Positions 48,892 to 49,607 of a DNA stretch of 64,000 bases are shown here, piece by piece. Source of the DNA: Albifimbria verrucaria (taxonomy: Eukaryota > Ascomycota > Sordariomycetes > Hypocreales > Stachybotryaceae); NCBI GenBank assembly GCA_020081605.1, contig JAHREC010000041.1:62001-126000 (forward strand), written 5' to 3'. Position 1 is the first letter of the stretch. Each line of letters starts with the position of its first letter. The position numbers and the translations under genes were made by a program. The notes below the pieces were generated by a model. It was not told the DNA's origin and searched no databases. It saw only the letters and a list, made by a program, of their open reading frames with translations.

Positions 48892-49607
48892 ATGGCTCGA
48901 AAAATAGATTCGGCAATACCTCATGGAGCTCTTTACAATCAACGAGGCAATTGGCGACTTTTGAACTCTACCGGTAAATTCTTGTTATGCTTCATCATCA
49001 CTGTACTGAGTAACCGAAAATAGGTATTCCTCGTAAAAGTGCCCGCCCTGTCAGGGAAAGCTGGAGTTCGGAAACTACAGGCCAACAGACAAACGATGTT
49101 CCAGAGGGGATCCAGTGGAGCACGGCCCAAGTGACATCGGACCTGGAGGACAGAGGCGATGACAACATTACAGAGGGGAGTGAAGATTTCGTTTACGAAT
49201 TGAGGGAAAATGAAAATATATCCCAGGAGAAGAATGATGCAGGACAGAAAACTAAGAAGCCCCATCGTTACAAACCCGGAACGGTCGCCTTACGTGAGAT
49301 TCGTCGTTATCAGAAGAATACTGAGCTGCTTATCAGAAAACTCCCATTTCAACGCTTGGTAAGAAAACATCTAAAACATGCGATTGCTTTCTTATCTGTT
49401 CACTAGGTTCGGGAAATTGCCCAAGATTACAAGTGTGGCTTGCGATTCCAATCAAAAGCTATTGAAGCCCTTCAAGAATCGTGCGAGGCTTTTATAATTC
49501 GTCTTTTTGAGGATGCCAATCTGTGTGCCGTGCATGCCAAGCGGGTAACAGTTCAAAGTAAGGATATACAGCTTGCTCGCCGCCTACGTGGTGAAGCCAC
49601 AGAATAG
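48892..49607 (+). CDS. Divergent histone H3 variant with long acidic N-terminal tail
   Basis: Three exons (48892-48973, 49024-49358, 49407-49607) with introns of 50 and 48 nt and phases 1 and 0 that match give 205 residues. From residue 103 on the sequence is a nearly canonical H3 core: [38 protein letters not shown], the loop [32 protein letters not shown] and ARRLRGE. The first 102 residues replace the usual 37-residue basic tail with a mostly acidic one (for example [17 protein letters not shown]), keeping only traces such as the MAR start, STG and RKS near residue 32. Loop 1 has the H3 length and RFQS, not the longer loop and RWQS usual in CENP-A, so this is an H3 variant, not a typical centromeric one. 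It should enter nucleosomes with H4. The frame is intact. Confidence 0.88.

What the first reader, a model, noticed from the sequence alone, without database searches (positions are those of the whole stretch)
48892..49607. Histone H3 variant with a near-canonical core and a non-histone acidic tail
Seen: three exons join in phase; the core from residue 103 keeps [22 protein letters not shown] and ARRLRGE, while residues 1-102 are about 69 residues longer than a normal tail and mostly acidic, losing the K4/K9/K27 context but keeping K36/K37-like KKPHR. Changes inside the core are clustered (loop KCG, then SKAIEAL, SCEAF). Loop 1 length and RFQS argue against CENP-A. Inference: a dedicated nucleosome variant whose tail cannot receive most standard marks, possibly acting in a specific cell type or genome region. 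I know no described fungal H3 variant with this tail, but could not search.
Basis: partly seen in the sequence, partly recalled or inferred. Interest (0 to 1): 0.88.

Follow-up and report, generated by a model that had tools for sequence, protein, structure and literature searches.

The report
Long-tailed histone H3 on accessory-like DNA
A fungus carries, on small extra-looking pieces of its genome, a strongly altered histone H3 whose core is normal but whose tail has lost most of its usual marking sites and gained an acidic stretch; it looks like a real, long-maintained gene, and extra H3 genes on such chromosomes have been reported from another fungus.

Summary
The gene is real. Three exons join into one 205-residue frame. 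The core differs from the genome's canonical H3 at 15 of 93 positions, and both introns keep the canonical places and phases. Synonymous sites are saturated against another accessory H3, yet 74 of 93 core residues are identical; neutral simulations gave at most 25. It is an old, constrained H3 paralogue and not CENP-A.

The new context is its address. The window lies on a 150-kb contig; copies sit on C34 and C37 (154 and 211 kb) between two cyclin genes. C37 also carries a second, near-canonical H3 beside a SETD2/ASH1-like SET gene. Accessory H3 genes with histone-modifying enzymes are reported from Metarhizium (passages); a word-seeded search found no relative of this tail. Best reading: an accessory-chromosome H3 variant giving ordinary nucleosomes that escape most tail marks. 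Expression, deposition and dispensability are untested.

The parts
48892..48973 (+). Exon 1: 27 codons and the first base of codon 28; begins MAR, otherwise unlike the canonical tail
   Evidence: donor GTAAAT. Its codon score is not coding-like (-1.06; another frame scores -0.87)
48974..49023 (+). Intron 1, 50 bases, phase 1
   Evidence: the canonical H3 gene has its first intron in phase 1 after 25 codons
49024..49358 (+). Exon 2: K27-like motif, acidic insert, K36/K37-like site, alpha-N and alpha-1
49032..49043 (+). RKSA, K27-like motif (residues 31-34)
   Evidence: intron-anchored alignment with canonical RKSAP, by eye
49050..49232 (+). Acidic insert, residues 37-97, net charge -12
   Evidence: codon score of residues 37-101 is +6.16, reached by 1 of 440 stop-free shuffles
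49254..49268 (+). KKPHR, K36/K37-like site (residues 105-109), preceded by Q-K-T in place of G33-G34-V35
49359..49406 (+). Intron 2, 48 bases, phase 0, at QRL/VREIAQ, the canonical H3 place
49407..49607 (+). Exon 3: end of alpha-1, loop 1, alpha-2, alpha-3, stop
   Evidence: Pfam Histone over residues 89-200 of the spliced protein
45638..46495 (+). Cyclin gene upstream (Cyclin_N E 1.8e-30), 45% identical to a cyclin on large contig C15
55334..56359 (+). Second cyclin gene downstream (Cyclin_N E 2.9e-33), 63% identical to the same C15 cyclin

Best explanation
It is a functional histone H3 variant gene carried by an accessory (supernumerary) chromosome of an ascomycete. SHOWN: H3 gene ancestry (core, both introns); long-term constraint on the core; loss of the N-terminal marking sites; an open frame for an acidic insert between the K27-like and K36-like sites; copies on other short contigs. 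INFERRED: DNA, H4 and H3-H3' contact residues are unchanged (recalled positions), so the protein should enter ordinary nucleosomes, with the host's chaperones, since the one Asf1 gene found lies on a large contig. S87K and G90E fall in the patch that HIRA/UBN1-type chaperones read (recalled), so deposition probably does not follow the H3.3-like route. Once placed, such nucleosomes could not take K4, K9, K14, K18 or K23 marks, would have an altered K27-K36 linker (G33-G34 replaced, acidic spacer), and would be looser through charge repulsion. Most likely effect: on accessory chromatin, or wherever it is deposited, the variant weakens or re-specifies heterochromatin that depends on H3 tails, to the benefit of the chromosome that encodes it.
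For: Unique in-phase model. 15 core changes in 93. Variant against the other accessory H3, which has a similar codon composition: 60.5 of 70.5 synonymous sites differ, 28.5 of 208.5 nonsynonymous. Neutral simulation to the same fourfold-site divergence: mean 11.7 and maximum 25 of 93 identities against 74 observed; 499 of 500 runs hold a stop. Gene identical on C31 and C34, while 10 substitutions and 4 indels lie elsewhere in the 8.5-kb block. A second accessory H3 also has an altered K27-G34 stretch, PRNKNWP with three residues fewer; a SET gene whose nearest solved relatives are SETD2 (E 6.6e-11) and ASH1L lies about 0.8-0.9 kb upstream of it. In Fusarium an accessory-encoded histone methyltransferase is active (PMC12774646, abstract and passages). 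In S. pombe H3-G34R reduces K36 trimethylation (PMC5515577, abstract in the search listing).
Against: No transcript or protein evidence. The C37 copy has two frame-breaking indels and one amino-acid change in the insert. Absence from other strains, which defines an accessory chromosome, was not tested. C31 and C34 end in the same 400 bases and may be alternative assembly paths, so their identical genes may be one gene. No diverged second copy of the tail exists, so constraint on the tail is unproven; exon 1 does not score as coding by codon use. No SET gene was found on C31 or C34, and ASF1, MYST and KAT11 matches lie only on large contigs.
Confidence: 0.5

Rival explanations
1. Hitch-hiking duplicate: an old H3 copy once useful, now drifting and dying on a dispensable chromosome; the odd tail is the first sign of decay and has no function.
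For: The C37 copy has two frame-breaking indels. A third H3 family on C12/C17/C18/C19 is decayed, with frame breaks and stops. Some frames in the window look split by eye, such as 32024-33150 and 49843-50952.
Against: 74 of 93 core identities after synonymous saturation against at most 25 in neutral runs; intact gene on C31 and C34; one of the two C37 indels is in a run of five T, and the core H3 gene of this assembly also shows two one-base gaps, so some gaps may be sequencing errors; the insert has coding-like codons.
Confidence: 0.25
2. Wrong gene model: part of the insert is an unrecognised intron, and the protein has a short tail reading about [15 protein letters not shown].
For: 40 in-frame GT-AG excisions are possible in exon 2, among them 49050-49247, which would join P36 directly to KTKKPHR.
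Against: That donor is GTCAGG. The better-looking donors are GTAAAA (49033) and GTGAAG (49180), against GTAAAT and GTAAGA in the two accepted introns. No branch-like CTRAY is seen shortly before 49247 (by eye). The insert is stop-free (440 of 20,000 shuffles are) and 1 of those 440 reaches its codon score.
Confidence: 0.12
3. A centromere-type H3: the alpha-2 helix has moved towards CENP-A and the protein marks or competes at accessory centromeres.
For: 11 of 15 changes fall at the 28 sites where the genome's CENP-A also differs from H3 (hypergeometric P 2e-4); four are the same residue (S98A, V101I, T107A, I112V). In alpha-2 the variant matches CENP-A at 22 of 30 and H3 at 20 of 30. A clade with the own CENP-A alone is not rejected (AU p 0.089).
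Against: No loop-1 insertion (CENP-A here has three extra residues), F84 not W. Outside alpha-2 it matches H3 at 58 of 63 and CENP-A at 43 of 63. Groups with the three fungal H3s used at 98/95; a clade with three CENP-As is rejected at p 0.029. Sites that tolerate change would give the same overlap; A98 occurs in animal H3 and in yeast H3 (recalled). Codons give no clear sign of gene conversion.
Confidence: 0.07

Closest known systems
Histone H3 homologues on the horizontally transferred accessory chromosome of Metarhizium (Habig and colleagues)
   Same: H3 genes on an accessory chromosome together with a histone methyltransferase (discussion passage in PMC12774646; [quoted passage not shown]
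   Different: Their sequences could not be compared here (the original paper is not held). The passages read mention no acidic insert and no cyclins. No call named the organism of this window; from recall its ITS is not Metarhizium.
Canonical fungal H3 (this genome, C13)
   Same: Core fold, 78 of 93 core residues, both intron places and phases.
   Different: 205 against 136 residues, nearly all of the excess in the tail; K4/K9/K14/K18/K23 contexts lost; acidic insert; GC3 0.43 against 0.80.
CENP-A/CenH3 (this genome, C41)
   Same: Divergent H3 with a changed tail; some shared alpha-2 residues.
   Different: No longer loop 1; groups with H3.
Accessory H3K27 methyltransferases Kmt6b/c of Fusarium oxysporum (PMC12774646, abstract and passages)
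   Same: Chromatin-modifying genes encoded by a fungal accessory chromosome.
   Different: Enzymes, not histones; the SET gene near the second accessory H3 here is nearest to SETD2/ASH1L among solved structures.
B-chromosome histone genes in animals (review PMC9846793, passages)
   Same: Histone genes on supernumerary chromosomes.
   Different: Described there as multigene families among other repeats, not as one diverged variant.

Membership tests
Histone H3 | Histone fold over the core | tested here: met
   PF00125 E 2.5e-43 over residues 89-200; best solved relatives are H3.1 chains, E 3e-50
Histone H3 | Groups with H3, not with CENP-A | tested here: met
   98/95 with three fungal H3s, two of them of this genome, in a 9-row tree; 97/97 in a 17-row tree. 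No H2A, H2B or H4 rows were included
Histone H3 | Gene structure of the genome's own H3 (two introns, same places and phases) | tested here: met
Canonical (replication) H3 | About 40-residue basic tail with K4, K9, K14, K18, K23, K27, K36 | tested here: not met
   only the K27-like RKSA and KKPHR remain
CENP-A/CenH3 | Longer loop 1 and tryptophan in place of F84 | tested here: not met
   no extra loop residues, RFQS kept
CENP-A/CenH3 | Groups with CenH3 | tested here: not met
   AU p 0.029 against a clade with three CenH3s; p 0.089, not rejected, for the own CENP-A alone
CENP-A/CenH3 | Located at centromeres | not testable with these tools
   needs ChIP
Accessory-chromosome H3 (Metarhizium kind) | Encoded on a dispensable chromosome | tested here: inconclusive
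   contigs of 150-211 kb beside contigs of 1.65-7.3 Mb; no other strain available; no telomere array at the ends of C31, C34 or C37
Accessory-chromosome H3 (Metarhizium kind) | Histone-modifying enzyme on the same chromosome | tested here: inconclusive
   C37 carries a copy of this H3, a second H3 and a SET gene, but its copy of this H3 is frame-broken; on C31 and C34 the SET search found none
Accessory-chromosome H3 (Metarhizium kind) | Sequence homology to those H3s | not tested
   their sequences were not at hand; the full-length search lists 120 of 7965 hits, swamped by ordinary H3

The most novel reading that the evidence does not exclude
The accessory chromosome carries its own chromatin-identity and cell-cycle kit: two diverged H3 variants, both altered between K27 and K36; a K36-type SET enzyme beside one of them; and three paralogues of one host cyclin, two flanking the long-tailed H3 and one about 25 kb from the other. 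The kit would mark the chromosome as different from the host's, shield it from facultative heterochromatin, and so help it persist or move. The long-tailed H3 would be the first H3 known to me whose tail is re-engineered by an internal acidic spacer.
Probability: 0.2. Interest if true: 0.85.

Novelty: new variant of a known kind. Interest (0 to 1): 0.55.

Why it matters
If expressed, it is an H3 whose tail lost most marking sites while the core stayed under strong constraint, and it comes from DNA that may be selfish. That would make testable the idea, raised for Fusarium with Metarhizium as an example (PMC12774646 discussion passage), that accessory chromosomes encode their own regulators, histone modifiers included. 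The two undecayed accessory H3 families in this genome are both altered in the K27-K36 stretch, which points at facultative heterochromatin as the target.

Tried and rejected
CENP-A identity: rejected by loop 1, RFQS and the tree, with the caveat that a pairing with the own CENP-A alone is not excluded at 0.05. Gene conversion from CENP-A in alpha-2: codon identity at residues shared by all three is 8 of 18 with CENP-A and 5 of 18 with H3; not evidence. In one search the CENP-A rows were misaligned (two instead of three loop residues removed); they are not used, one search replaces them. Full-length homology search: 7965 hits, 120 listed, dominated by long proteins with several H3 cores; uninformative for relatives. 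Tail search: 2 candidates, none at E<=1; it needs shared five-letter words and a length of 0.55-1.75 times the query, so diverged tails are missed. The cyclin search likewise listed only 3 weak hits of 984 candidates. The 19.5-kb DNA search did not list the known C34 and C37:128k copies, so it was not used for copy counts. The first cyclin script picked wrong frames for four minus-strand loci; one search repeats it on both strands and its numbers are used. PMC13104227 passages hold nothing on histone genes. Paper searches were read as listings, apart from the four papers opened for passages.

Full report
WHAT IS THERE. The window is bases 62001-126000 of contig C31 (149,913 bases) of an unnamed 48.4-Mb, 41-contig genome. 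At 48892-49607 three exons join in phase into a 205-residue protein; one of the 4 splice combinations tried gives a single open frame. The start ATG is the first in its open frame. Pfam's Histone model matches residues 89-200 of the spliced protein with E 2.5e-43; the best solved relatives are H3.1 chains.

ANCESTRY. The genome's canonical H3 gene lies on C13 near an H4 gene, and its CENP-A gene on C41. The canonical gene has a phase-1 intron after 25 codons and a phase-0 intron at QRL/VREIAQ. The finding's gene has a phase-1 intron after 27 codons and a phase-0 intron at QRL/VREIAQ. With intron 1 as anchor, exon 2 reads I-P-R-K-S-A-R-P against canonical R-K-S-A-P. So a K27-like RKSA survives and the acidic stretch is an insert between it and the K36 site; this alignment was read by eye. 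Residues 1-36 hold 7 K/R and 1 D/E; residues 37-97 hold 4 K/R and 16 D/E, net -12; the first 40 residues of canonical H3 are +12. The residues that canonical H3 has as G33-G34 are Q-K here.

CORE. Against canonical H3 there are 15 changes in 93 core positions: S57N, F78Y, S80C, D81G, S87K, G90E, V96C, S98A, Y99F, L100I, V101I, S102R, T107A, I112V, I119V. Position 102 rests on the usual canonical residue, which the assembly does not show because of a one-base gap. C96 and A98 occur in animal H3. DNA-contacting and H3-H3' interface residues are unchanged; their list is recalled, not computed.

IS IT MAINTAINED? Canonical against variant: 59.2 of 67.7 synonymous and 23.8 of 205.3 nonsynonymous sites differ. 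Codon bias differs (GC3 0.80 against 0.43), so the fairer pair is the variant against the other accessory H3 (GC3 0.37): 60.5 of 70.5 and 28.5 of 208.5. Under neutral simulation to the same fourfold-site divergence (22 of 35), identity averaged 11.7 and never exceeded 25 of 93 in 500 runs, and 499 runs held a stop; observed identity is 74. The core has therefore been held by selection for a long time, at least over most of the two lineages. For the tail no diverged comparison exists. Its insert is stop-free (440 of 20,000 shuffles are) and has a codon score, trained on 15 uncurated frames of the window, that 1 of those 440 reaches; exon 1 by itself does not score as coding.

NOT CENP-A. The variant lacks the three extra loop-1 residues of the genome's CENP-A and keeps RFQS. 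In a 9-row tree it groups with three fungal H3s at 98/95; a clade with three CENP-As is rejected at p 0.029, but a clade with the genome's own CENP-A alone is not (p 0.089). Its alpha-2 helix matches CENP-A at 22 of 30 positions and H3 at 20 of 30, and 11 of its 15 changes fall where CENP-A also differs (P 2e-4). I read this as change at tolerant sites; codons give no clear sign of conversion.

ADDRESS. Copies sit on C34 (153,724 bases) and C37 (211,332 bases). Over 8.5 kb C34 differs by 10 substitutions and 4 indels, none in the gene; over 7 kb C37 differs by 53 substitutions and 17 indels in the MAFFT count (BLAST counts 43 mismatches and 21 gaps). Inside the coding exons C37 has three substitutions (two silent, one I57T in the insert) and two frame-breaking indels, one in a run of T. 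The core H3 gene also shows two one-base gaps, so sequencing error is possible but not shown. C31 and C34 end in the same 400 bases, and so do C9, C17, C18 and C19; these contigs may be alternative paths, and copy numbers are uncertain. At the 14 contig ends looked at there is no telomere array; arrays start C9 and C12 (whose listing of 177 places was cut).

COMPANY. Two cyclin genes flank the H3 gene, 45% and 63% identical to one cyclin on large contig C15; a third, 83% identical to it, lies about 25 kb from the second accessory H3 on C9, C17, C18, C19 and C37 (only the C9 and C37 copies were compared). The two flanking cyclins have matches in place on C34 and C37. The second accessory H3 (spliced model from C9) keeps K4 and K9 contexts but reads PRNKNWP in place of ARKSAPSTGG, and has a C-terminal extension. 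About 0.8-0.9 kb upstream of it lies a SET-domain frame whose best solved relatives are SETD2 (6.6e-11) and ASH1L (1.8e-9). The genome-wide SET search gave 24 matches, none on C31 or C34. A third, decayed H3 family occurs on C12, C17, C18 and C19. ASF1 (1 match), MYST (4 matches) and KAT11 (1 match) ring only on the large contigs C6, C10, C15 and C41.

LITERATURE. [quoted passage not shown] PMC10687773 (passages of the talk abstract) mentions two putative histones. The original Metarhizium paper is not held. The listings of searches (54 papers, 15 listed; 3 papers; 0 papers) show no acidic-insert H3, and that of one search (5 papers, by title on B chromosomes of plants or animals or on rye meiosis) no fungal kit with cyclins; those papers were not opened for this.

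MECHANISM. Shown: gene, ancestry, core constraint, lost tail sites, acidic insert in frame. Inferred: ordinary nucleosome entry through host chaperones, an unfavourable patch for G90-reading chaperones, resistance to K4/K9 marks, altered K27/K36 marking. S. pombe H3-G34R reduces K36 trimethylation (PMC5515577, abstract in listing), which makes the Q-K change before K36 suggestive. The proposal that this serves the chromosome that encodes it is a hypothesis. The odds are as first filed; the checks changed the cyclin numbers, intron-2 place and distances, not the reading.

Noticed in passing
L040 (C9:114500-121500), about 3375-3895 minus; matches on C17, C18, C19 and C37: Second accessory H3, near-canonical (MARTKQTARKSAGGKAPRKRLASKA...), with the K27-G34 stretch replaced by PRNKNWP, C110A and a C-terminal extension.
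   Followed up: partly
L040, C9:119252-119569 minus; C37:29944-30117 minus: SET-domain frame 0.8-0.9 kb upstream of the near-canonical accessory H3; nearest solved relatives SETD2 and ASH1L.
   Followed up: partly
L041 (C17:4296-4719), C18 and C19 at the same place, C12:256317-256511: Third, decayed H3 family with frame breaks and stops; on C17-C19 within 5 kb of the contig start.
   Followed up: no
window 45638-46495 and 55334-56359; L054 (C9): Three accessory cyclins, 45, 63 and 83% identical to one cyclin on large contig C15, as if copied from it at different times.
   Followed up: partly
window 51391-52428 and 53381-54256, minus: Two related open frames without Pfam match (66% DNA identity over 707 bases); a third look-alike at 23062-23778 judged by eye.
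   Followed up: no
window 47825-48388 minus: Divergently oriented neighbour of no Pfam family: 187 aa in C31 and C34 but a 309-aa open frame in C37, where the H3 copy is broken.
   Followed up: partly
L042 (C13:1616500-1623500): The canonical H3 gene shows two one-base gaps, probably sequencing errors at runs of C; other frame breaks in this assembly deserve the same doubt.
   Followed up: partly
window 38309-39454, 15730-16506, 30313-30954, 41892-43076: GH18 protein, aspartyl protease, Asp f 4-like protein (Pfam), and a split gene that looks like a P450 by eye; the last has an 83% DNA relative on large contig C6.
   Followed up: no
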